A stretch of DNA of 64,000 bases, taken from NCBI GenBank assembly GCA_034509425.1, contig JAVTVJ010000049.1, positions 2,130,001 to 2,194,000 on the forward strand, read 5' to 3'. This document shows, one piece after another, positions 6,800 to 50,476 of the stretch. This stretch comes from Eopsaltria australis (lineage: Eukaryota > Chordata > Aves > Passeriformes > Petroicidae). Both the position numbers and the translations under genes were made by a program. Every line of letters starts with the position of its first letter. Position 1 is the stretch's first letter. The notes below the pieces were generated by a model. It had not been told where the DNA came from. It did no database searches and saw only the letters and a list, made by a program, of their open reading frames with translations.

Positions 6800-7405
6800 T
6801 GGATAGATCATAGAAGCGTTTGGGTTGAAAGAGGCCTTTAAAGTTTGTCTAAAATGACCCCCCTCCAGTCGGCAGGGACATCTTCAACTGGATCAGTCTG
6901 CTCAGACCCTCATCCAGTCTGACTTTGAATGTTTCTAGGGTGAAGGCATCTATCACCTCTCAGAGCAGCCTGTGCCAGTGTTTTCATCACTCTCATTGTA
7001 AACATTTTTTTCCTTACATGTAGTCTGAGTCTACCCTGCTTTAGTTTAAAACCATTAACCTTGTCCTTTTGCAACAGACTCTGTTGAAAAGTTTCTACAC
7101 ATCTCTTTTATGAGCCCCCTTTAGATGCTGAGAGGCTGCAATGAGGTCTTCCTGGAACCTTCTCTTCTCTCTCAGCCTTTCCTCATAGGAGAGATACTCC
7201 ATCCCTCTGATCATCTTGATGTTCCTCCTCTGGACTCGCTCCAACAGGTCCATGTCCTTCCTGTGTTGGGTATCCCAGAGCTGGATGCAGCACTGCAGGT
7301 GGGGTCTCACCAGAACAGAGCAGAGGGGCAGAATCTCCTCCCTCCCCTGCAGGCCACACTGCTTTGGATGCAGCCCAGGGAATGGCTGGCTTCCTGTCTG
7401 CAAGA
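6800..7405 (-). mobile_element. CR1 LINE 3' fragment (ORF2 C-terminus and 3' end)
   Basis: This is a 5'-truncated CR1 copy on the minus strand. Its 3' end lies near 6800, where the plus strand reads atcatagaagcgtttgggtt, a diverged form of the CR1 3' end. Translation of the minus strand from 7436 down gives LVRPHLQCCIQLWDTQ, then LLERVQRRNIKMIRGMEYLSYEERLRE, then FQEDLIAASQHLKGAHKRD. These are the ordered C-terminal motifs of CR1 ORF2 after the reverse-transcriptase core. The 5' boundary near 7405 is where resemblance fades, just after a segment matching the usual CR1 sequence around atgcagcccaggg. The coding frame is broken beyond 7095. CR1 copies are usually truncated at the 5' end, so this length is ordinary. 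Confidence 0.88.
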
Positions 7406-22719: not shown

Positions 22720-23030
22720 TATGATAGAATTACAGAATGGTTTGGGTTGGCAGAGACCCTAAAGATCATTTAGTTCCAAACCTCCTGCCATGGGCAGGGA
22801 CACTTTCTGCTAAACCAGGTTGCTCCAAGTCCCATCCAACCTGGCCTTGCACATTTCCAAGGATGGGACAGCCTCAGCTTCTCTGGGTAGCATGTTCCAG
22901 GATGTCATAATCTGCATAGTGAATATTTTCTTCTTAATCTAGAACCTAAATTTACCTGCTTTCAGTTAGAACTCTTAGCCCTCATCCTGTTCTATTACTA
23001 CACTCCTTGATAAAGAGTCCCTGATAAGAA
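22720..23030 (-). mobile_element. CR1 LINE 3'-end fragment
   Basis: This is a short, 5'-truncated CR1 copy in minus orientation. The plus strand begins with degenerate tagaattacagaatgg octamer-like repeats, then tttgggttggcagagaccct, the signature of the CR1 3' end. A cctgccatgggcagggaca block and a caacctggccttg block follow, corresponding to the reverse complement of the ORF2 C-terminal region. Frames are broken, and only the final few hundred bases of the element remain. The 5' boundary near 23030 is approximate. Confidence 0.88.
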
Positions 23031-25512: not shown

Positions 25513-26720
25513 CATCACAGAATCCCAGAACAGGTGAGGTTTGGCACCTTTGGATCATCTGGTCAAAACTCCTTCTCAAGGCAGGGACACCTAGGGCTGT
25601 TTGCTCAGGGTTATATCTGATCAAGTTTTGAATATTTCCAAGGAGGAAGACTCCACGCCCTCTCTGGGCAACCTGTTGGGGAAAAAAAAAAAAAAAGCTT
25701 TTTCTTGTGCTTAAACACATTTTTCTCTGTCTGTGCCTTCTTGTCTGGTCATTGGTTCCCATGAGGAAAAGTTTGGTTCCATTTTCTTTACTTCCCCCAT
25801 CAGGTATTTACAAACACCGAAAAGATATCTTCTGAGCCATTTCTTCAGTTTGAGTAGTCCCAGCACTTTCAGTCTCTCTGTATAAGACATGCTCCAGTCT
25901 CTTAATCATCTTTGTTGCCCTTTGCTGGACCCATTCCAATAAATCCCTGTCTTCTATTGGAGACCAGACCTAGGCACAGTACTGTAGATTCATCTTACTA
26001 GGCTGAGCAACCTTCCCACTTCTGCAATGTTCTGCCTAATACAGTCCAGGAAGTTCTTGGCCTTCTGTGACACAAGGGTACATGGACCTTGGTTGAGTTT
26101 TAACTTGTCTAACAGGACCCCAAGATCCTTTTTGGCAAAGTAGTTTCCCAATCAGTCTTCAGCCTGTACTGGTACATGGATAATTCCTTTGCAGGTGCAG
26201 GAATTTATTTTTCTGTTTGCTGTGCTTCATGAGATTACTGCCAGCCCAGTTTTTCAGCCTGTTGAGGTCCCTTTGGATATCAGCACCACTTTGTGGTTTA
26301 TCAATTGCTTCTCTGTTATTTTTATCATGTCCAAATTTGCTGAGTATGTATTCTGTCTCATTATCCAATTAATTAATGAAGATGTTAACCAGTATTTGCC
26401 CTAGTATTGACCCTTTGGGTACACTAGTTATATGTGTTGGACTGCTGCTGCCCTCCTGTGTTGTTTATCCAGGAAATGATGGGGTTAATTGAGTTTCCTA
26501 TGAGTATGGCTTGAAAAAGTGAAATTATGTGAAGGTTTTGTCTGCATTTTCCTGATCAGATGTCCCGTAGTAGACACGCACAGTTGTACCAACCGCTTTG
26601 ATCTGCCCTCTAATCCTGACCCATAAGATCTCAGCTAGCTCATCATTCATCAGAAGGAAGATCTTCATGTATTCACTCCCATAAAATGACTCTCCCTTTG
26701 TGCCATCCTGGCCTGTACTT
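25513..26720 (-). mobile_element. CR1 LINE relic: endonuclease piece joined to reverse-transcriptase and 3' end
   Basis: Read on the minus strand from 26720 down, the first part gives DELAEILWVRIRGQIK and VRVYYGTSDQENADKTF, matching the middle of the CR1 endonuclease domain. Near 26450 the reading jumps to PKGSILGQ and VNIFIN, and then to LSKFGHD (26338-26318), the place of the FADD catalytic motif of the reverse transcriptase. ADIQRDLNRLKNWAGSNLMKH and FLHLQRN follow. KDLGVLLDK, VSQKAKNFLDCI and a diverged C-terminal segment lead to the 3' end near 25513 (plus strand catcacagaatcccagaaca). The rest of the endonuclease, the connecting region and early reverse-transcriptase motifs are missing, so an internal deletion is inferred. 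Stops, a T14 tract (plus-strand A run near 25681) and the FADD-to-FGHD change show the copy is dead. Confidence 0.8.
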
Positions 26721-32300: not shown

Positions 32301-33689
32301 GAGTAGTGGCAGAGATGTCCTCCCCCTCCCAAGTGATAATGTCTGTAAAGAAAGGGGGAGGCACAGAGACAAGGTTCCTATGCAGGATGCAAAATTGAGA
32401 TTTTCTAGGAAAACTTTTTGTTGTTTTAGTGAAGAACCTGTATGTCAGTAATTTCCATGTCATGTATGTAGCAGGCTTGGGTGGACCTGAAATGAGGAGA
32501 GGAGTAAGGACTTGGGCTCACCTGCCAGTTAATGCAGTGATGCCCGTGGTATTTACTTGGTAGGTGAGAGAATCACACTTGGAATTGCCATGCATTGCTC
32601 AAAACAGCAGCTTAAATCTCTTACATCAGTTTCAAGTAAATACTTCTATGAGTTTAAAGATCACGACAGAGTAAAATTTGCTCATTCATCTTTACTGGAG
32701 ATTCTTTAACATTTGGTAATTCAGTACCTGATAAAGCCCTGAACTTCCAGCTTCTCCAAATCAGGTGAAGCAGCTGCACTCCTATTAAACCTCTCCTCTG
32801 ATTCTTCTTCCTGTCTTCCCTCACTTCTCTTTGAAAGTTTCATTTTATGGAGAGAGAAAGTAATTTTAAACAATAAAAATGGTTCCCTAGCTTGCTCTGG
32901 CAGGCGTGGTGTTTAGGGCTCTTTTTGTTTTGCTTTTTTTTTTTATATTTTTTTTTTATTTTCCCCTTAGATTTATGTACCTCTTGGGCTGTGCAAAGTA
33001 AGATAAATCTTTGAATGTCTGTTCAAAATATATATCCAGAAATTCTATGGTCCAGGAATTGCATAGCAAAATGGATTGACACATCAATGGAATTTTCTCA
33101 AATTAATAGAAGTTTACACATTTACTGATCTAGAACTGAGATATAAATAAAATGGTTTAACCTAACATGTAATTTTCAACAGACAAATCTCTCTGGCTTT
33201 AGAAATGCTGAGGATTAGATCTGGAAACTCCAGCTTCTTTCAGGTAAGAGAACAATTTCTACTGGTATTGAGGTAATAGATTTTCTATCATGAGTACTTT
33301 TTACAAAGTCTGATTTCTCTATGACTCAGCAAGGAACCCACTTCTATTTGCTCTATTTTGTGAAAAAAATTCAGGGAAAGTCCTTTTGTTCATATAAATA
33401 TTTAGATAATAGCTTCTCTGTGTGTGAATAAGGCTATTGGACCATGAATGATTATTTTTTTTTATCCAAACAAGGGTATTCATGCTGAAATGTCTTAACT
33501 AGCTGCATAATATAAAAAGGCTTTGTGCCTCTATGAGTTAGCAATCAGAGGGAGATAAAAAGTGTTTTAAAACATAAGAAATAAATAAGCTTTGGTATGA
33601 ACTAATGTGAGCATAAAAATTTGAATTACAGGATCGTATTAGTAATAGCAAAAAATAATCACTGAAATCTGTGCTCCTGGCAGGAAAAC

Positions 33690-34015
33690 TACTATCCTGA
33701 AACATTTGGCTGATCAGCCTCACCTCAGGCCTGGGGAAGGTGATTGAAAACCCAGTCCTGGAAGTAATTTCTAGGTGCATGAAGGACAAGAAAACAGTAG
33801 TCATCATGGATCCACCAAGGGAAAGTCATGTTTGACCAGCTGGAAAATATTGTACAATAAAATGGTTGGCTTGCTAGATGGTGGGGATGTAGTAGATATT
33901 TCCTAGATTTCAGTAATTATTTCAATGTTTTTTCCTGTAAGAGTCTCATGCAGAAGCTGTTGAAGCATGGGCTGGATGAGCAAGCAGAGGTGGATTGAAA
34001 ACTGGCTGTTGCTGG
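33690..34015 (+). mobile_element. CR1 LINE fragment: reverse-transcriptase segment
   Basis: The plus strand carries part of a CR1 ORF2 reverse transcriptase in broken frames. SLTSGLGKVIENPVLEVISR (from about 33717) corresponds to the conserved segment just after NYRPVSLTS. STKGKSCLT follows (near 33810), then a VVDIS remnant of the motif A region. The fragment ends with the nucleotide block ggctggatgagc...gattgaaaactggctg, which encodes the GLDE...WIENWL segment and stops near 34015. The catalytic FADD region and everything downstream are missing. Immediately after 34015 the sequence changes to the R2 element on the same strand, so the two elements abut with no recognisable spacer. Confidence 0.75.
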
Positions 34016-34060
34016 GACTAATTCATCATCTAAAGAGGATGCATGGTCAAAGAAAGATCT

Positions 34061-34408
34061 TTTTTTAAGTGCTCCAAATGTGGTAGACAAAATCTTAAGT
34101 ACCGTAGTATTGCCTGTCATGTCCTACGGTTCAAAGGGACTGTGAGTGTGGTTCCTACGGGCAATTGGACTTGTGAAGTATGCCATAGAGAGTTCTTGAC
34201 CAACATTGGCCTGGGCTAACACAAGAGGTTGTTGCATCCTCTTGTGAGGGACTTGGAGCAGACTGCTGCCTCCCATCTAAAAGAGTCATCTTTGAGAGGA
34301 GCCCACAAAAAGGTATGGACTAAGGAGGAAGAGGGTCTCCTGAGTTGCTTGGTGGTGATGTATGCTAGTAACAGGAATGTTAGAAAGTTGCTTGTGCATT
34401 CCATCTAA
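34061..34408 (+). pseudogene. R2 protein N-terminus: zinc fingers and Myb-like DNA-binding segment (broken)
   Basis: This frame encodes the DNA-binding head of R2. The first finger has Cys codons at 34070 and 34079 and a His at 34118 (C-x2-C-x12-H), but the fourth ligand position reads Phe in HVLRFKG. The second finger has Cys at 34172 and 34181 and His at 34220 and 34235 (C-x2-C-x12-H-x4-H), interrupted by TAA at 34217 just before the first His. HKKVWTKEEEGLL (Trp codon at 34316) looks like the Myb helix start, and the frame ends at TAA 34406. In the family these modules contact the rDNA target. R2 elements have one to three fingers depending on clade; two are visible here, and a further one may have been lost at the truncated 5' end. 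Confidence 0.8.
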
Positions 34409-34445
34409 GACAGTGAAGTAAATTAGTGACAAGAGATGCCTTCTT

Positions 34446-35839
34446 TTGAGAAGTCCCGCGGAAGTGGCTCCATCTGGAATTGAAGGCGTGCTCCAAACGG
34501 GTGGTGAGGAGCCTACCCAGTCTATTGCTTTGCCAACAGAGGGACAATTAAAGATCCACTATTGGGATGACACCTGGAATGGGTTATCAGCGTGCAGGTT
34601 CACCAAGTGCCAGAGGGCTTTTGAAAGAATTTTGGATGGACAAGATCCGCAAGGAGTGGTGAACGACTCTTATGAGGAATGTTTCAGCAGACTGAGTAAG
34701 CTCTGCCAGGTTACAAAAGCAACCAGGGATTCAAAGTCTCAAAGATCCCATGGTCAGAAAGCATCTAGAAAAACAGCTATCTGGATGCAAAAAAGAGCGA
34801 GAAACAGAGATTGTTTGACTTGCGTAGGGGAAACTGGCAAGGATTATTTTGGATAACATGGATGCCTTGCAATCTGAGATTCCATTTGCCATTTTCTACT
34901 CTAATTTCAGAGCAAGGTGGGAGACATCAGTTGAGTTTAAGGGCCTTGAAACCTTCCTGTCGTACAAGGAAGCAGATAACACCATGTTTCAGGACCTGAT
35001 TACTGAAAAAGAGGTTGAAAAGAACTTGAAAGAGGTGAGAAGGACCTCAGCTCCTGAGCCGGATGGGTTTATAATGGGTCAGCTTACTAAATGGGACCCT
35101 AAGTATTCCCTGTTGACTGAGAGATTTAATCTCTGGCTTGCGACTGGAACAATCCCAGACGCACTGCAGAAATGCTGGATGGTCTTGATACCAAAGTCTT
35201 CTGATCTGGAGAGACTTCAAGACATCAATAACTGGAGGCCTATCACTATTGCTTCTATAGTACTTAGGTTATTCTCCAGAATTTTGATGGCAAGGCTGGA
35301 CTGGGCATATCCAATTAACCCCAGACAGAGGGGGTATATCTGTGCGTCAGGTTGTTCTGAAAATCTCAAGCTGTTACAGCTTGTGGTTAAACATGCAAAA
35401 ATGGAGCATCAAGAACCTGAGGTTGTGTTTGTAGACATTGCCAGGGCATTTGACACCATCTGCCATTGGCATATTATTAAGGGTTCAGAGCAGCGGGGGC
35501 TCGATCCCCATATGATCCATCTAGTCAGTGAAAGGTACGAAAACATTGTTACGTACATTAACACCAAAAGGGGAAGGAAGGGACCCCATTAAGATCCTTA
35601 TGGGTGTCTAGCAGGGTGATTCCATGTCACTAGTGTTATTCAACCTTGCTCTTGATCCCCTATTATGCAAGTTGGAACGGGTGGGGAAGGGTTTCTGTCA
35701 TGGTGGTTTGAAAATTATGGCCATGTCCTTTGCAGATGATCTAGTGTTGTTGAGTGATTCCTGGGAGGGAATGCAAAAGAACATCAAAATATTGGAGACC
35801 TTTTGTGAGCTTACTGGTCTCCAAACACAGAGGGTGTAA
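34446..35839 (+). pseudogene. R2 protein: linker and reverse-transcriptase domain (frameshifted)
   Basis: Three frames together cover the region. 34446-34856 holds the linker (HYWDDTWN, then FERILDGQDPQGVV and KRARNRD). 34849-35592 holds RTSAPEPDGF, a KCWMVLIPK segment, INNWRPITI (Asn127 codon at 35227) and FVDIARAFDTI, whose catalytic Asp codon is at 35434. Near 35590 the frame shifts, and KILMGV-stop-QGDSMSLVLFNLALDPLL continues, with TAG at 35609. FADD, the second catalytic pair, lies at 35729-35740 and is intact. GLQTQRV ends at the stop closing 35839. The domain synthesises cDNA from the element's own RNA at the nicked target. The core catalytic aspartates survive, but the frame breaks make a functional product impossible. 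Confidence 0.87.
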
Positions 35840-36286
35840 TGCCATGGCTTTTACATCAAGCCTAATAAAGACTCATATACCATCAATGATTGTCCTGCAT
35901 AGACAATAAATCCCATAATATGATTGACCTGGGACACTCAGAAAAATATCTTGGCACTTGGGTTGATCCCTGAACTGGCTTTGCTGATTCTGGTCTGTCT
36001 GAGAAATTAGAGAAATGGCTCCATTAGATTGGTGAGGCACCACTCAAACCTCTTCAGGAGGTCAATATACTAAGCACTTACACTGTCCAGAGACTGGTGT
36101 ATCTGGCCAACCATACTGACGTAAGAGCAGTGCTCCTTCAAACTCTTGACTTACTAATTTGAGCTGCAGTCAAGGGCTGGCTTCATCTTCCACCAAATAC
36201 GTGTGATGGTATTTTGTATTCCAGCTGTAAAGATGGTGGATTAGGTATCTTGAAATTGGTGGTGCTCGTTTCAAGATGACGATCTT
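35840..36286 (+). pseudogene. R2 protein: reverse-transcriptase thumb and connecting region (multiple stops)
   Basis: Too broken to form a long open frame, this stretch is still readable. From 35923 the frame gives IDLGHSEKYLGTWVDP, then TGA at 35971, LSEKLEKWL, TAG at 36025, PLKPLQEVNILSTYTVQRLVYLAN, then TGA at 36160, and KDGGLGI (Lys codon at 36229). The EKYLG and KDGGLGI words are characteristic of the R2 thumb and linker. This part uses a different frame from both the preceding FADD segment and the following endonuclease frame, so at least one indel lies on each side. It joins the polymerase to the endonuclease. Confidence 0.8.
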
Positions 36287-37168
36287 GTGACGTTTCTGAA
36301 GGGTGAACATCTGGAATTGTTATATGAGAAATTGTGGGTTCGAGCTGGAGGTAATAAAGAGTCCATCCCGCAAATTTGGGAACCTATTCCAAGGCTGGAG
36401 AGTTCTGTGGGTGGGGATGAAGGTCTGTCAGAATGGGAGGCATCAGTTCAGGAAGTCCACTATCCAAGACCTTGTAATTGGCGGAAGTCTGAGTTTCAGA
36501 AATGGAAACAGCTGGTTGCCCAGGGCCATGGTATTGAGAATGATAAGATCAGTAATGGATGGATGATACGCTACAGAGGCATACCTCACAGAAAGCTGAT
36601 TACTGCACTTCAATTGAGAGCCAATGTCTACCCTACAAGAGAATTCCTGGCAAGGGGTAGGCATGGAGACTGCATGCGATCTTGCTGGCATTGTGGTGCT
36701 GAGTTTGAGACTTCTGCCCATATAACTGGAAACTGTCCAATTACTCAGGATGCCAGGATTAAGCATCACAATTCCATCAGTGAGACTCTTAGCTGCAAGG
36801 CTAAGAGGAAGAATCAGACATTTTTCCACGAACCACACCTCAGGGATGAGGACAATGAATTGTTTAAACTGGATTTAATCTTCATTAAAGAGGACAAGGC
36901 ATTCATGGTTGGCGTGACAGTCAGATACGAGCTCAGCAACTCTTCTCTGAAGGATGATGTGGCTGAGAAGGCAAAAAAATGTCAATGCCTTTTCAAACAG
37001 ATCCAAGAATTGACTAACGCGGTTATCATAGAATTCATGGGCTTTCCTTTGGGAGTGTGGGGAAAGTGGTACGAGAGAAACTCTGAGTTGCTATCAGCCC
37101 TGGGTCTCTCTAAAACAAGGCTAGAGAAGACTGCATGCACTCTACCATCCAGAACTCTCCTCTGTTGA
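36287..37168 (+). pseudogene. R2 protein C-terminus: CCHC knuckle and restriction-like endonuclease
   Basis: This open stretch of 293 codons is the best preserved part of the element. Cys133, Cys136, His145 and Cys150 (CWHCG...HITGNC) form the C-x2-C-x8-H-x4-C knuckle. The PD-(D/E)xK-type nuclease follows: KLDLIF around Asp196 sits where the family has a KPDL word, and MVGVTVRYE places Gly209 where an acidic residue is expected. FKQIQELTNA, FMGFPLG and KWYERNSELLSALGLSKTR make up the conserved R2 C-terminus, and the frame closes with TGA at 37166. The nuclease nicks the 28S target in working elements. The Gly209 and Leu195 substitutions suggest lost cleavage even apart from the upstream breaks. 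The first Met is not a true start; the segment belongs to one long protein. Confidence 0.87.
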
Positions 37169-37385
37169 TATTCTACATATATTTAAAAGCCAAGCTCATT
37201 CCATTGTACCTTAATAAATAAATATAAAATTGGCTGTGACATTTCGCTTGGACAAGGAGAGGTGGATACCAGTGGGGATATTCATCCTGCTCATACCGTG
37301 TCGCCCACCACCTATATTTGGGCATATCAAATTCCAATTGGGACCAGGTGGACGGGCCACCTTTACTTAACCTGGAAAAGAAACA
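37169..37385 (+). other. R2 3' untranslated region (probable)
   Basis: The sequence after the R2 stop includes ccttaataaataaatataaa near 37208 and a more structured, GC-richer stretch with ccagtggggat, cgtgtcgcccacc and ggacgggccacc up to about 37371. In R2 the 3' UTR RNA folds and is bound by the R2 protein for initiation. Similarity to R2 3' tails is inferred from position and composition. The endpoint near the aacctggaaaaga words is tentative, and no 28S sequence follows. Confidence 0.5.
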
Positions 37386-39550
37386 TACACAATTTGTATG
37401 CTTATTAGATAGTCTTCAACTAGAATGCCTGTGGGATCTGCACTCTAAGTGTGGTTTGGAACTTCCTTATCACAACTAATGCAGCAATAGAGTGATAATA
37501 ATTAAAATATAAATTTCAGTAACTACCAGCACCACAGCATTCTGAAGTATCGCCTTTTATACATGTGTTTTAAACAGGAGAGATCTGTGGTAATTTCTAA
37601 CCATATCATGGCTTCTAAGACAAAATACGATGAACAGAGATGAAGGTGTCTATGATTTTTTCACTGCTATTCTCAATTCAGCTGTCCTTTCCATACAGTA
37701 GTGACTGTCACATTGAAAAATATTGCAGGTTGTATAAAAGTAGATCTGTTCTGCAAGGTTTGTGTATGCCGTTGCCAGGTTAATATTAACATTTACTAAT
37801 TGATCTGTAAATTTTTACTAAGACATTTAAGATTATAAATTTCTGAACCTATAAAAAGTGCAATGAAGTACTCAGGATGAAGGTTTTGGAAGAAGAATGT
37901 TGGAATCTCTTATGTACTTGTCATAATCAAGATATTCTCATGCTGCTTCAATTTGTCCATGTTGCAAAATGAATTATGGATAAATTTACATTTCAAGGAG
38001 GTGCTTCATATGTACTGAGGCCTAGGTCAAACAAATATTATGATGATGTAGAGCACATGAGCACATTGCCAGAGGCTTTAAAGCTCCTTGTAGTTTACAT
38101 AATTTGCATGACTCATGGTCAAAATTAATGCAAATCAATATAATATTTCTTTGGAAAACTTGCACTTTTTTTACAGCTTAAGTCTGTAAGTTTGAGTTTG
38201 GCAGGGATCAATAAGAGTCAGAAGAGAGAATAAAGTGTGCTGGGGCAACCAAACAAAGCAGCCTGGTTGTTCAACATGCAGGGCAAGAAAATGTGACCCA
38301 GTGGCACGACTGCCTGCCTGGAGTCAAGAGCAGTTATGTAATGTCCTGGTAGTTACAAGCAGCCAAAGCACAGCTGAAGCAGTAATTCCTAAGGAGTAGA
38401 AAGAGGAAAATAATCAGACTTAAAACTCAAGACCTTATTTACCAAAAGAAATGAGTTCTCCAAGGTAGTTCATAAGACTACACGATAAATGCACTAATGT
38501 GGATAAGAAAAATGTGACATAAGTGTCCCAAAGAAGATGCAACAAAACTGCAAGGGAACAGAGACTACTGCCTGTCTCTTTGGCTGTAAATTGTTTAATC
38601 TTCCTTCCTTAAAAGTCAACATGGGTGGACTAGATATTTGTTATTTTTGTGTCTGGCTTTCTGATTATGTGGTTCAGCTACTAAAAATGTCAGTGAATAT
38701 TCCTTTTGTCAAACACCAGTACAGCTCCACTAAATCTTTTAGAAACGGCCAGTGAATCTTTCTGGAATTCCACCTGAACTCCTGTGAAACCTCCCTGTTT
38801 CAGCTCCTTTTCAGTCTTTGTTACTGTTTCTTTGGGGATCACTGTAGAATTGAGGTGGGGGCTGTCTGCACATTCTACCTGTCTGTCTGCTTGTTGGTAA
38901 GAATTGATTTTCCCCTACTTCTTGTTTTCCTCAAAACCTCCCCTTCAGGTTTCTGTACTTCAGAGAAATGAGGAGTAACCTTTCTGATAGCTGTAATCTT
39001 TTAAAGTTTGTGATTTATCTATGTAGAAATGAACTAGAGCTTCACTTTATAATGAATTTCATACTTTTGAATCCCTGTTATGCCATGAATTTTTTATGTC
39101 TTTATCAGTTTTTCTTGCTGTATATTACAATTTGTTCTACTCTCTGCCGCAGTTCTGCTAAACTGGGAATTTGCTCTCCCCCACTAAACGCGATTCCAAT
39201 AGTGATGTACTGTGCTGTAAAGGCAATGCCCTTAGGTTCAGCTGAACTAAATCCTTCCAACCTCTGTAGCCTTTTGAATTAGCTCTTAACTGTCTCAATT
39301 CTTTTTCATCAAACTGTTCAATCACAGGTACCTGTGATGTTAAGTGTTGAAATACAGACTCTTCTGAAAAAGAAGCTTAAGCAGTCTGCGTTAGACTTTG
39401 TTTCTTTTGTTCATTAAGCTGTGAACCACCACTAGAGAAAAATATTCTGGAGTTTCATGTCCTGCAATAATAGATTTAATGTACATTTAGGACAGGTTAC
39501 ACTATTCCTCTTCATTACTAACATGCTCTAAGACTTTCATGTTTGATTAT
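37386..39550. other. AT-rich non-coding stretch, no gene recognised
   Basis: No element was recognised, and the CR1 copy interrupted before the R2 element does not resume here. The open frames at 38537-38755 and 38968-39282 have no recognisable motifs. Confidence 0.5.
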
Positions 39551-40090
39551 CCATGGAATCGTACAGAATCCATACAGTTATGGAATCACTGAGGTTGGAA
39601 GAGGCCTTTAAGATCATCCAGCCCAACCATCCGCCCAGCACTAACACCGTTAACTCCTGAACCACTAAACCTCATTGCCCTCACCAGACCCCGACACCTC
39701 TTAAACATTTAAGGGATGGTGACTCCACCACCTCTCTGGGCAACCTATTCCAATTCCTGACCACCCACAACAGTGAAAAATTTTTACTAATATCTAATCT
39801 GAATCTCCCCTGGCTCAGCCTGAGGCCATTTCCTCTGGTCCTCACTGCAGGCATGGTAGAAGAGACTGGTCCTCTCCTTGCTATACCTCCTTTCAGGGGG
39901 TTATAGAGAGCAATAAGGTCCCCTTTGAGCCTCCTTTTCTCTAAGCTGAACACTCCCAGCTCCCTCAGGTGCCCCTCATGGGACATGTGTTTTATACCCT
40001 TCACCAGCTTTGTTGCCCTTCTCAGGACATACTCAAGCACCTCAATGACCTTTTGGAAGTTAGGGGCCTGGAACTGAATGCAGTACCTGA
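39551..40090 (-). mobile_element. CR1-like LINE 3' fragment with ORF2 C-terminus
   Basis: The plus strand starts with degenerate octamer-like repeats (ccatggaatcg, ccatacagttatggaatcac), followed by tgaggttggaagaggccttt, the 3' signature of a minus-strand copy. Minus-strand translation from 40040 down gives [26 protein letters not shown], then [42 protein letters not shown] and [14 protein letters not shown], the ordered C-terminal words of CR1 ORF2. One frame stays open for 119 codons, so this is among the less decayed fragments. It shares its subfamily-specific words with the plus-strand copy at 49950-50476, but only in part with the copies at 6800 and 22720. The 5' boundary is approximate. 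Confidence 0.87.
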
Positions 40091-43000
40091 TGTAAACTCA
40101 AAGAAGTATTACTAATAATATATCAAACTGTTTTATAAAGTATCTGTAAATGTGGCCTAATTTTCTAATTATGTATCACAGCTTCATGATCTTTGTCTTT
40201 TGAATTTTTTTTTTTCATTATGTCTTTTGAAGCATATGTATGGGTTTAGCAATTAAAACACGTTTAACAGGTTTAATTTTCACTTCTGTTTTTCAGTTCA
40301 AGATTATTTTATTCTTCAGGAAGATCTTTTTTTCCTCTTGAGGTTATTTTGAAGGGGACTTTAGTGACTGTTTTTTCACTGAAAACTCATAGCTACATTT
40401 TCCCGTCTAACATTAAATTTGATATCTATAGCCAATCTATAATTCAAAATGGTTGCCTCAGTGTGTAGGGCAAGATGTCAGCTTCCTGTCATCCCTGCAT
40501 TCAGCTAATGAAGATTAAGGCTCTCTCTAGAAGTCCCTTTCAGTTTTTGGGGGTTTTTTGCAACTTTTTTTTAATACAGAACACTGATATGCTGATATTT
40601 AATGTGGTTAAATCTAAAATGATTGTGAAATGGTTACGTTCATGGTATCTAAATATGGATATTGGATGCTTGCATCTGGGCATGTTTTTACAGTTAGTGC
40701 ACTTCCTGTCCATCACAGCTTCTTGTGGTTCCATGATTTTTCTAACTTATTATTGTCTTTCCATTTTCCAATTTTCCCTTGTGCTAATCTGTTTGTCCAG
40801 TGTAACAGCATCTCAGTTTTCTTCTAACATCTTTTTGACATGTCCTTATTGCTTCCCCTAATTTAGGTTTCTATCTTGTAGCTGTCATCCCAGTACCTTT
40901 ATATCTTTGATTCCAATCACTATTTGATCTCTTCTAATGGAATCAGTCAGTATGCCATAATTGCATGGTGGACTTGTTAAGTGACTGTCAGTCAAGGATT
41001 CCTCAAATTTAGAGAAATGAAAGAAATTCTGTTCTTTGAGAGGTGCATGTGATGACAATGATGTCCTTCAAAAGTTTCACTTTTCTTAGGAACACTGTAT
41101 TTCTCCAGCACATTTTCAGAGACAGGTTTTTCATTCTCTATTAGTACCAAGATAACAAGTAAATGGAGAATTTCAGGTACTGCTTTATTCAAAAAATAGC
41201 AGCACCTTTTTATGATTGCTTTTGAGTCCGGTTGGTCATGCATAGATTCAAAAGCCTGCATAAATCTTTGATTCTGCAGCATTGCCAAAGAACATCAGTT
41301 GTTTCTCACTCTCAGTAGCATTCTTCTCTCTGTCTCAATTTCTTTAAAAACTTGTTTTTTTCAAGAGCTCATTTCAGTATAATGCAACACCTGTAGAATA
41401 TCTGGTTGTAGAGCAGCCACTGAGAAGTTAGAAGCATTGCTTCTGCATGCTCTAAATTTCTTTGATTATGTAAAAAATAACCAACACACACCAACATTTT
41501 AAAAAAAACTACAGGGAAGGTAATGTAATTGACTTCCTGACATTTAGAGTATTAAGTGTTGAACTGTCTTTCTAATCAGACTTATCTTGACACAGGTGTT
41601 TTGGGTTTTTTAAAATTTATTTTGCCACTCTGCCTTGCCCCTTTGTCTTTTGTCCTCCATGTTCGGAGACTGTAGTCTTTCTCAGAAGCTGGTTTATGTG
41701 TGTATGTACCAAAATGACAAGGTTGTTAACTGCACAGTCTGCCAGTGATGTTCAGCAGAACCAAAAACTATAGTCAGGGCCCACCTTGAAACCAGAGCCA
41801 TGATTGACTGCAAGATCATACATGAAGCTCACTCTGGGTTAAGGTGCGCAACCAGCTCAGGCTGCAAGTGTGAGTATTCGTGAAGGGAAACCTCATGGCC
41901 CTCATTTGAGATGGTATGGTGTGCCGTGTTGGCTTGGTCCCTATATTATAGTGCAGGTATTTAGTAAACTTTATACAGTCTAAATGAAGTATTTGACAAA
42001 AGCTATTAAAAATTCATGAATAACGGTGGGATTCCTGTTGTATAAGAGTGGATATTTCATTTCCGTTTGCAGTTTTGGCTCTACCATGAGGAACTGTGTA
42101 AGATCACATTAAGGATCCCCAGAAGACATGTGGAATGGGGTCTCCTTGCTGACCTGAAGTGAAAAGAATCACCACCACATGACAGTGTTTGAAAACTGCC
42201 AACAAAATATCCAAAAAGTCATTAGTTAGGCTGTCAGTGTATTCTTTCACCTTTCCCCTGAAACCCTCAGAGGTCCTCATGTCTAACCCTTCATCTAGGA
42301 GGCTGGGAATTTCAGTCTGCTGTAATGCTAAATTTAAAAGTGGATGGAGGGACAAATAGTCTACTTTTTTTTCCTGAGTTAATGAATCTCAGTAACTCTG
42401 AATGAAGCCACATTCCAGTGGTACCTACAGGCAACAACCAAAATCATGATGAATATATCTGAAGAAAGTTTGGAAGCTGGTAAGATGATCTAGAGGGGAT
42501 TAAGGAATGAAATATGGAAATATGTTCATTGTTGGAAAGGATAGATTGAGCTTGCTACAGAAAGTCTATTGTGTTTTACTGAAAATACTGCTCAGTCATA
42601 GTCAGAGAGGGAATAGTTAATTTAGGTGTGAAGATATTATCAGCATTACCAGTAATGTTAAGTAGGATTTTGTCATCAGTTTATCATCAGCTGTAACTTC
42701 ATTGGCACTTGCATTCTCCTCAACATTCCACAGTGGAACAGCAGTAGTTGGGTACAGAAGTTTCCTGGGAGATTCCATGCAAGCAAATCCTGCTGAACCT
42801 CTGTGTGCCTATGCTGCCCATAGGCACCATGATGAGGAACGTGAACAGTCTGTATTGAGCTTGTCCCTTTCATATAACTTTCTGTAGGTACTGTTGAGCG
42901 GATTATAGGGCTTGATGAACCTTTTGGTATGGCTCAGTAATGCTCTTTTTTAGTTTTGTATAGGTGTTAGGGAGAAGAGGAAATGTGGGTATCAAGTTGT

Positions 43001-46964: not shown

Positions 46965-47300
46965 GGAACCACAGTATCACAGAGTATCCTGAGTTGGAAG
47001 GGACCCACAAAGAACCATTTAAGTCCACCTCCTGGCCTTGCACAGCAACATCCCCAGGAATCACTCCCTGTGCCTGAGATTGTTGTCCAAAAGCCTCTTG
47101 AACTGTGTCAGGCTTGGTGCTGTGACCACTGCCCTGGGGAGCTGTTCCAGTGCCCAAACACCCTCTGAGGGGAAAAGCTTTTTCCTAATATCCAGTCTAA
47201 ATCTCTCCTGATACAGCTTCAGGCCATTCCCTTGGGTCCTGTCACTGGTCACCACAGAGAAAAGGTCAGTGCCTGCCCCTCTGCTTCCCCTCATGATGTT
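46965..47300 (-). mobile_element. CR1 LINE 3'-end fragment
   Basis: The minus-strand CR1 3' end is seen on the plus strand as cacagtatcacagagtatcc followed by tgagttggaagggaccca. Minus-strand translation from about 47294 down reads GAGTDLFSVVTSDRTQGNGLKLYQERFRLDIRKKLFP, then LEQLPRAVVTAPSLTQFKRLLD, the final words of CR1 ORF2. The 77-codon frame is intact over this part. Only the last 330 or so bases of the element remain. Confidence 0.9.
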
Positions 47301-49949: not shown

Positions 49950-50476
49950 ATTGACTCAGCACTGGTGAGGCTGCACCTTGAACCCTGTGTTTAGCTCTGG
50001 GTTCCTCACAGCAAGAAGGACATTGAGGTGCTGGAGTGTGTCCAGAGAAGGGCAGTGGAGCTGGTGAAGGATCTGGAGCAGAAGTCTGATGAGGCATGGC
50101 TGAGGGAGCTGGGGTTGTTTAGCCTGGAGAAAAGGAGATTCAGGAGGCCTTATTGCTCTCTACAACCACTTGAAAGAAGGTTGTTGAGAGGTGGTTGTTG
50201 GCCTCTTTGCCTGCATAACAAGTGACAGAATAAGAGGAAACGGCCTCAAGTTGCACTAAGGCAAATTTAGATTGGATATTAGGAAAAATTTCTTCATTTA
50301 AAGGGTTGCCAAGCATTGGAACAGGCTGCACAGGGAAGTGGTGGAGTCACAGTCTCTGGAAGTGTTCAAGAAAGATATAGATGTGGTGCTTAAAGACATA
50401 GTTTAGTGACAACCATCAGTGCTGGGCTGATGGTTGACTTGATGATTTTCCAACCTCAATGATTTCATGATTTTAT
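49950..50476 (+). mobile_element. CR1-like LINE 3' fragment with octamer tail
   Basis: This is a plus-strand copy. From 50028 one frame reads MLECVQRRAVELVKDLEQKSDEAWLRELGLFSLEKRRF, the C-terminal ORF2 signature; frame breaks follow, and FRLDIRKNF- and WNRLHREVVESQSLEVFK-type segments can be traced to about 50370. The 3' end is clean: ttccaacctcaatgatttca runs into gatttcatgattttat (50461-50476), which reads as two copies of the CR1 8-base tail repeat. The orientation is opposite to the related copy at 39551-40090. Confidence 0.88.

What the first reader, a model, noticed from the sequence alone, without database searches (positions are those of the whole stretch)
34016..37385. R2 retrotransposon copy lying outside ribosomal DNA
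R2 elements are famous for inserting at one fixed place in 28S rRNA genes. Here a nearly complete R2 coding region (zinc fingers to C-terminal endonuclease) sits in AT-rich, non-ribosomal DNA, with a CR1 fragment on the left and unassigned sequence on the right. It may be an off-target insertion, or a piece moved out of the rDNA with its 28S flanks lost. Such copies escape rDNA turnover and can preserve old R2 lineages.
Basis: partly seen in the sequence, partly recalled or inferred. Interest (0 to 1): 0.78.

Follow-up and report, generated by a model that had tools for sequence, protein, structure and literature searches.

The report
Fossil R2 retrotransposon outside ribosomal DNA
This is a dead, shortened copy of R2, a 'jumping gene' that normally lives in ribosomal RNA genes, stranded elsewhere in what is probably a songbird genome; such strays are already known in birds, but this one belongs to a little-noticed second songbird R2 lineage.

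Summary
An avian A-clade R2 lies at about 34009-37410 (+ strand). It is dead: 8 in-frame stops and 8 frame changes over 1059 aligned codons. No significant 28S sequence was found at either border; the window contains no N.

Best explanation (inferred): an off-target, 5'-truncated target-primed insertion, perhaps tens of millions of years old. The right flank begins TAGTC against TAGCC in 28S; R2Tg off-targets in human cells share 4-5 nt of such homology. The upstream off-target signature is not seen, and a weak 28S-like stretch at the right border (about 9% by chance) keeps 'moved out of rDNA' alive.

In trees the copy falls in a passerine R2 clade (100/99) separate from the zebra-finch clade. 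Corvus and Zosterops each carry both, contrary to the published 'single lineage in birds'. Dead avian R2 copies flanked by non-rRNA sequence were reported in 2016: a new member of a known kind. The host-genome search did not complete, so copy number, empty site and assembly remain unchecked.

The parts
33713..34008 (+). CR1 LINE fragment (RT domain, SLTS..WIENWL), sense strand, stops abruptly at the R2 5' junction; weak CR1-like similarity may reach left to about 33655
   Evidence: frameshift-aware alignment to 3 bird/turtle CR1 proteins, 44-47% identity, 3 frame changes in 296 bp, all three ending at 34008; tblastn of 120 CR1 proteins at E up to 1, two hits starting at 33655/33658
34009..37202 (+). 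R2 coding remnant: half of ZnF3, ZnF2, ZnF1, Myb, RT, linker, zinc knuckle, restriction-like endonuclease, to the penultimate residue of the Junco R2 protein (148-1236 of 1237)
   Evidence: Pfam RVT_1 in two pieces above the cut-off, zf-RVT below its cut-off
34009..34390 (+). N-terminal DNA-binding part: ZnF3 remnant without its CxxC, ZnF2, ZnF1, Myb
   Evidence: alignment to Junco P0001 and TaGu/PlaMe R2; domain names from the R2 papers and recall
34828..36270 (+). reverse transcriptase core and following linker; FADD motif kept
36275..37165 (+). zinc knuckle and restriction-like endonuclease in one open frame; KPDLI..VVDV of Junco reads KLDLI..MVGV here, so an acidic position is lost
   Evidence: that these residues are catalytic is recalled
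37203..37411 (+). R2 3' UTR, about 207 nt
   Evidence: position between the end of protein homology and the matched R2Tg 3' end
37347..37374 (+). candidate H-type pseudoknot: GGTGG/CCACC with loop CGGG pairing CCTG (one G-U)
   Evidence: read from the sequence against the pseudoknot-hinge-stem of avian/turtle R2 3' UTRs (PMC12180492 passages); the nested fold of 37340-37411 alone is not significant (z -1.0)
37375..37380 (+). GAAAAG hinge, identical to the hinge read by A-clade R2 proteins
37381..37409 (+). terminal stem and 3' end of R2
   Evidence: hairpin in 37375-37411, z -2.2
37410..37414 (+). first bases of the right flank, TAGTC, against TAGCC downstream of the R2 site in 28S
   Evidence: 3.6% of window positions do as well at any of 4 offsets

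Best explanation
A once-active songbird R2 of the A clade made an off-target insertion. The R2 protein nicked a chromosomal site that offered a few bases matching the TAGCC tail of the R2 transcript. It primed reverse transcription at the R2 3' end, stopped before reaching the 5' end (truncation inside ZnF3), and the cDNA end was joined to upstream DNA that was already an old CR1 fossil. The copy then decayed neutrally. Shown: the intact R2 3' terminus, the 5' truncation, no significant 28S at either border, and the broken reading frame. Inferred: the nick, the priming homology, the joining step, the age and the passerine host.
For: Native 3' end kept, with candidate pseudoknot, GAAAAG hinge and stem, as expected if priming began at the R2 3' UTR. 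5' truncation is a known R2 outcome (PMC11371274 passages; PMC4370867 start of abstract in a listing). Flank TAGTC against TAGCC fits the off-target rule of 4-5 nt downstream homology (PMC12222951 passages); off-target candidates were about 1% for TaGu and 0.1% for ZoAl in human cells (PMC11371274 passages). No significant 28S at the borders. CR1 has 3 frame changes in 296 bp against 8 in 3194 bp for R2 (P=0.04), so CR1 is probably older. CpG o/e is 0.26 in R2 against 0.11 in the rest of the window, so R2 is probably younger than its surroundings.
Against: No target-site duplication: the best matches are two of 6 nt, with 4.8 such matches expected by chance. The other off-target signatures of PMC12222951 are not seen if the 5' join lost no bases: the base 20 upstream is G, not T, and the last nine, AACTGGCTG, are not T/C-rich then T/A-rich. 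The rest of CR1 is not found to the right (5 weak rows at E up to 1 in 37380-39400, one of them on the + strand at 38817-38936), so the insertion must have deleted it or CR1 was already cut. TAGTC could be chance (3.6%). Adding 27 nt of 28S to the R2Tg end raises the alignment from 71 to 77, matched by 9.3% of 1000 shuffled tails. No empty site could be examined.
Confidence: 0.58

Rival explanations
1. The copy was first inserted in a 28S gene or an orphan rDNA piece, was moved out by recombination, and later lost its 28S flanks by deletion or decay.
For: PMC5035012 describes avian R2 copies with fragmented 28S flanks. Two weak 28S-like stretches lie to the right: TAG-AATGCCT-GT..GATCT at about 37421-37439 in the expected order after R2 (alignment gain 6; 9.3% of shuffled and 8.8% of window-drawn tails do as well), and 37627-37649 (score 15, 20 of 24 columns).
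Against: At about 5-12% neutral decay a 28S flank of the same age should still be obvious; none is significant. The second stretch is about 60 nt off the expected diagonal, and 5 of 396 control stretches do as well. The left flank is CR1, with no 28S similarity above controls (81% of them as good).
Confidence: 0.21
2. Chimeric insertion: during reverse transcription the R2 enzyme switched from R2 RNA to a CR1 RNA, so CR1 and R2 entered together.
For: CR1 and R2 have the same orientation and a sharp junction. Avian R2 proteins jump templates in vitro (PMC11371274). An R1-R2 fusion outside rDNA is known in D. simulans (PMC2718515).
Against: CR1 looks more decayed than R2 (P=0.04), and its left edge is not sharp. 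No duplication flanks the pair: the one 7-nt repeat that I saw by eye at the CR1 left edge lies inside the R2 3' UTR.
Confidence: 0.1
3. The second passerine sublineage, to which this copy belongs, has relaxed or changed target specificity, so this is an ordinary insertion for it.
For: Of seven sublineage-2 proteins from named birds six have a contig length, and four of the six lie on contigs over 50 kb. The two N-termini seen start ZnF3 with CPQC/CPHC, not CPCC.
Against: Two of four zebra-finch-type proteins with a named bird and contig length are also on long contigs. CPCC is also missing in the cuckoo protein and in owls. The canary copy R2-1_SCa, listed among those with 28S junctions, is divergent (76% in its first 100 bp) and could be of this sublineage (my guess).
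Confidence: 0.07
4. Assembly chimera joining an R2 contig to unrelated DNA.
For: No read data were available to test the joins.
Against: The R2 copy is decayed like an old resident, the window has no N, and the join is at base level into a recognisable CR1 codon.
Confidence: 0.04

Closest known systems
R2Tg / TaGu R2 of zebra finch (A clade; PDB 9nl3, 9dou)
   Same: domain order, 59.7% RT identity, 3' UTR end with 46 of 54 bases identical
   Different: active and 28S-specific in the papers read; belongs to the other passerine sublineage
Junco hyemalis R2 protein (P0001, UniProt A0A8C5JJ73)
   Same: closest full-length relative among those aligned, 61.7% over 1059 codons, same clade at 100/99
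   Different: predicted open frame of 1237 aa; its genomic site is unknown to me
Dead avian R2 copies of Kojima et al. 2016 (PMC5035012)
   Same: disrupted R2, some flanked by non-rRNA sequence
   Different: described there as a single bird lineage
R2NS families (R2NS-1_SMed, R2NS-1_CSi)
   Same: R2 outside 28S
   Different: families with copies over 98% identical to their consensus, D and C clades, flatworms; here one dead A-clade copy
Non-28S R2 copies in Drosophila (PMC2718515)
   Same: frequently incomplete, outside rDNA
   Different: 1-2% diverged from the rDNA copies; insect lineage

Membership tests
R2 element, A clade | single ORF with R2-type RT and C-terminal restriction-like endonuclease | tested here: met
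   (now broken by stops and frame changes)
R2 element, A clade | three N-terminal zinc fingers and Myb | tested here: inconclusive
   ZnF2, ZnF1, Myb and the second half of ZnF3 are present; the 5' part is truncated
R2 element, A clade | avian/turtle 3' UTR pseudoknot-hinge-stem | tested here: met
   46 of 54 bases match R2Tg; GAAAAG hinge identical; pseudoknot pairing read by eye
R2 element, A clade | 5' HDV-like ribozyme | tested here: not met
   0 Rfam ribozyme matches; expected, since the 5' end is missing
R2 element, A clade | insertion at the 28S site | tested here: not met
   no significant 28S at the borders; this is a property of this copy, not of the family
Passerine R2 sublineage 2 (Junco/Corvus type; my name) | falls in the clade of Junco, Chloebia, Corvus P0248, Gymnorhina, Zosterops P0257 | tested here: met
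   100/99 in two trees of overlapping rows (14 of 46 rows; 11 of 27 rows)
R2NS (non-specific R2 family) | several near-identical copies at unrelated sites | not testable with these tools
   own-genome search unanswered in 15 attempts
CR1 (left neighbour) | CR1-type RT sequence | tested here: met
   44-47% identity to 3 bird/turtle CR1 proteins over about 100 codons

The most novel reading that the evidence does not exclude
Passerines have carried two R2 sublineages side by side since before crows and white-eyes split, and the second (to which this fossil belongs) is a vertebrate R2 with relaxed target choice that seeded dispersed copies, making this locus a normal rather than a stray insertion.
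Probability: 0.08. Interest if true: 0.75.

Novelty: new member of a known kind. Interest (0 to 1): 0.42.

Why it matters
Off-target insertion by avian R2 is of practical concern, because zebra-finch and sparrow R2 proteins are used to write genes into human 28S loci (PMC11371274). A natural junction of this kind, with its native 3' end and first flanking bases still readable, shows what evolution has recorded of the same reaction. The copy also points to a second, co-resident passerine R2 sublineage, whereas published surveys describe a single lineage in birds (PMC5035012) and few, if any, sub-lineages in lineage A (PMC13188248); its living members may be additional tools.

Tried and rejected
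A CR1-R2 duplication: the 7-nt GAAACAT at 33699-33705 and again at 37380-37386 looked like a target-site duplication until the R2Tg 3' end printed in PMC12222951 showed that the right-hand copy lies inside the R2 3' UTR. A scan with the corrected end gave only 6-nt matches (2 found, 4.8 expected).

28S remnant in the right flank: AATGCCT (37424-37430) alone is not significant (33% of 3186 controls as good); with the neighbouring bases aligned after the R2 end it reaches about 9%; the match at 37627-37649 is off the diagonal (5 of 396 controls as good). Kept as a rival.

Significant RNA fold of 37200-37400: no (z -0.47). IMG/VR scan for relatives of the Junco R2 protein: nothing. Rfam: nothing of use. 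Host identity from coding genes: I saw no recognisable exon among the frames of at least 95 codons, and six open frames outside R2, at least one of them a CR1 piece, had no Pfam match.

For the C-terminal tree I used 34 of the 37 proteins, leaving out P0274 and P0275 (35-37% identity) and P0277 (27% coverage), plus 10 of the 120 listed. One search used 20 of those 120. One search used 27 hand-picked rows. The two 'one clade' tests were run after the tree had been seen. Third and last protein search spent on the endonuclease piece.

Full report
What is there. The RT piece (34828-35589) and the endonuclease piece (36254-37165) match zebra-finch R2 (PDB 9nl3) at E=5.4e-94 and 3.1e-102. The set of pieces gives 1162 bits against zebra-finch R2, 870 against the 9nl2 protein (turtle PlaMe) and about 200 against Bombyx R2 (8gh6). 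Among 259 proteins found with the RT region (best 120 listed) the first is a Junco R2 of 1237 aa (P0001). A frameshift-aware alignment runs from 34009 to 37202 against Junco residues 148-1236: 61.7% identity over 1059 codons, 8 stops, 8 frame changes; three other R2 proteins give 7-8 stops and 7-8 frame changes over what they cover. Pfam sees RVT_1 in two pieces above the cut-off and zf-RVT below it.

Borders. On the left, CR1 homology ends at 34008 in the three CR1 proteins aligned, within ...WIENWL, and R2 homology begins at 34009 within ZnF3. So the 5' UTR, the first 147 residues (Junco numbering) and the ZnF3 cysteine pair are missing; no match to the missing part was seen elsewhere in the window at E up to 1e-3. 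On the right, PMC12222951 (section 35 read) prints two pieces of the end of the R2Tg 3' UTR. The window matches them in 46 of 54 bases (score 71, best of 704 control stretches 33). The hinge GAAAAG, which A-clade R2 proteins read in the cryo-EM structures (PMC12180492 passages), is identical (37375-37380). A GGTGG/CCACC stem with a CGGG loop can pair with CCTG (37347-37374) as an H-type pseudoknot (my reading), and a terminal hairpin follows.

Not in rDNA now. The 28S target is absent from the window with up to 3 mismatches. Rfam finds no rRNA in the window at gathering scores or, permissively, in 33500-38000. The best ungapped matches of the 28S pieces are 17 of 28 and 17 of 27, none at a border. 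Against this reading: when 27 nt of 28S are added to the R2Tg end the alignment score rises from 71 to 77, reading the right border as TAG-AATGCCT-GT..GATCT after a short insert, but 9.3% of 1000 shuffled tails and 8.8% of 1000 window-drawn tails do as well. Another local match (37627-37649) is equalled by 5 of 396 control stretches and lies about 60 nt off the expected diagonal.

Age. Simulated neutral decay of the same codons makes 8 stops compatible with roughly 0.05-0.12 substitutions per site (transition bias 4, no CpG effect). With a recalled avian neutral rate near 2e-9 per year this is some 25-60 million years; it is rough and assumes an intact copy at insertion. CpG o/e (0.26 against 0.11 in the rest of the window) says that R2 is probably younger than its surroundings. 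CR1 carries proportionally more frame changes (3 in 296 bp against 8 in 3194 bp, P=0.04).

Mechanism. A kept 3' end, 5' truncation, no significant 28S flank, and a flank starting TAGTC (against TAGCC; 3.6% by chance at any of 4 offsets) fit off-target target-primed reverse transcription. PMC12222951 (passages) found that R2Tg off-targets in human cells match 4-5 nt of the downstream tail, and also a T 20 bp upstream and a pyrimidine-then-T/A motif; these upstream features are not seen here (G at -20), though the upstream side would be blurred if the 5' join lost bases. PMC11371274 (passages) found off-target candidates at about 1% (TaGu) and 0.1% (ZoAl), a need for primer-tail pairing, 5'-truncated insertions and template jumping. 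No target-site duplication was found, and the CR1 remainder was not found in 37380-39400 (5 weak rows at E up to 1, one on the + strand), so a deletion at the 5' join or an already truncated CR1 has to be assumed.

Lineage. In the long-protein tree (21 rows) the window groups with Junco (100/99) inside the birds, apart from turtles. In the endonuclease tree of 46 rows it lies in a 14-row clade (100/99) with Junco, Chloebia, Haemorhous, Corvus P0248, Gymnorhina and Zosterops P0257. Zebra finch, Lonchura, Acridotheres, Corvus P0253 and Zosterops P0270 form another, 10-row clade (99/99); both lie inside a passerine group (97/98), in which Willisornis, Formicarius, Manacus and Cyanistes stay unresolved. 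A 27-row subset gives the same two clades (100/99 and 99/98) with the passerine group at 94/92, and holding the two Corvus rows or the two Zosterops rows together is rejected (p 6e-61, 2e-54; groups chosen after seeing the first tree). The simplest reading is that two R2 sublineages coexist in passerines and that the window's host is a passerine; the host is inferred, not shown. PMC5035012 (passages and section 11) concluded that birds have a single lineage; PMC13188248 (abstract, sections 8, 9, 11, 14 and passages) found few, if any, sub-lineages in lineage A and two avian subclusters split mainly by passerine or not. I did not find the passerine split described in what I saw from searches; supplements were not readable.

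Known or new. Bird R2 copies flanked by non-rRNA sequence are in print (PMC5035012), as are non-28S R2 copies in Drosophila (PMC2718515 passages). This is a new member of a known kind, with a readable 3' junction and an informative lineage.

Limits. The own-genome search did not complete (15 attempts), so copy number, the empty site, rDNA-resident relatives and assembly support are untested.

Noticed in passing
proteins P0001, P0242, P0243, P0248, P0250, P0257 against P0031, P0253, P0263, P0270: Two well-supported R2 sublineages in passerines; Corvus brachyrhynchos and Zosterops borbonicus each have a protein of both.
   Followed up: partly
P0276, P0007: Gene models in which an R2 endonuclease (P0276) or RT (P0007, cuckoo) part is followed by the N-terminal zinc-finger part of R2, as if two R2 copies lay head to tail or one were rearranged; P0276 stands for 9 sequences.
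   Followed up: no
window 6803-7396 (-), 22721-23017 (-), 25628-25983 (-), 26011-26428 (-), 39571-40097 (-), 47076-47246 (-), 49954-50370 (+): Further CR1 fragments, found with a recalled CR1 sequence.
   Followed up: partly
names: Public bird annotations name many CR1 and some R2 reverse transcriptases 'mitochondrial enolase superfamily member 1' or 'triadin', apparently a misannotation.
   Followed up: no
window 36850-36935: KPDLI..VVDV of the Junco R2 endonuclease reads KLDLI..MVGV, so the nuclease would probably be damaged even without the stops (catalytic role recalled).
   Followed up: partly
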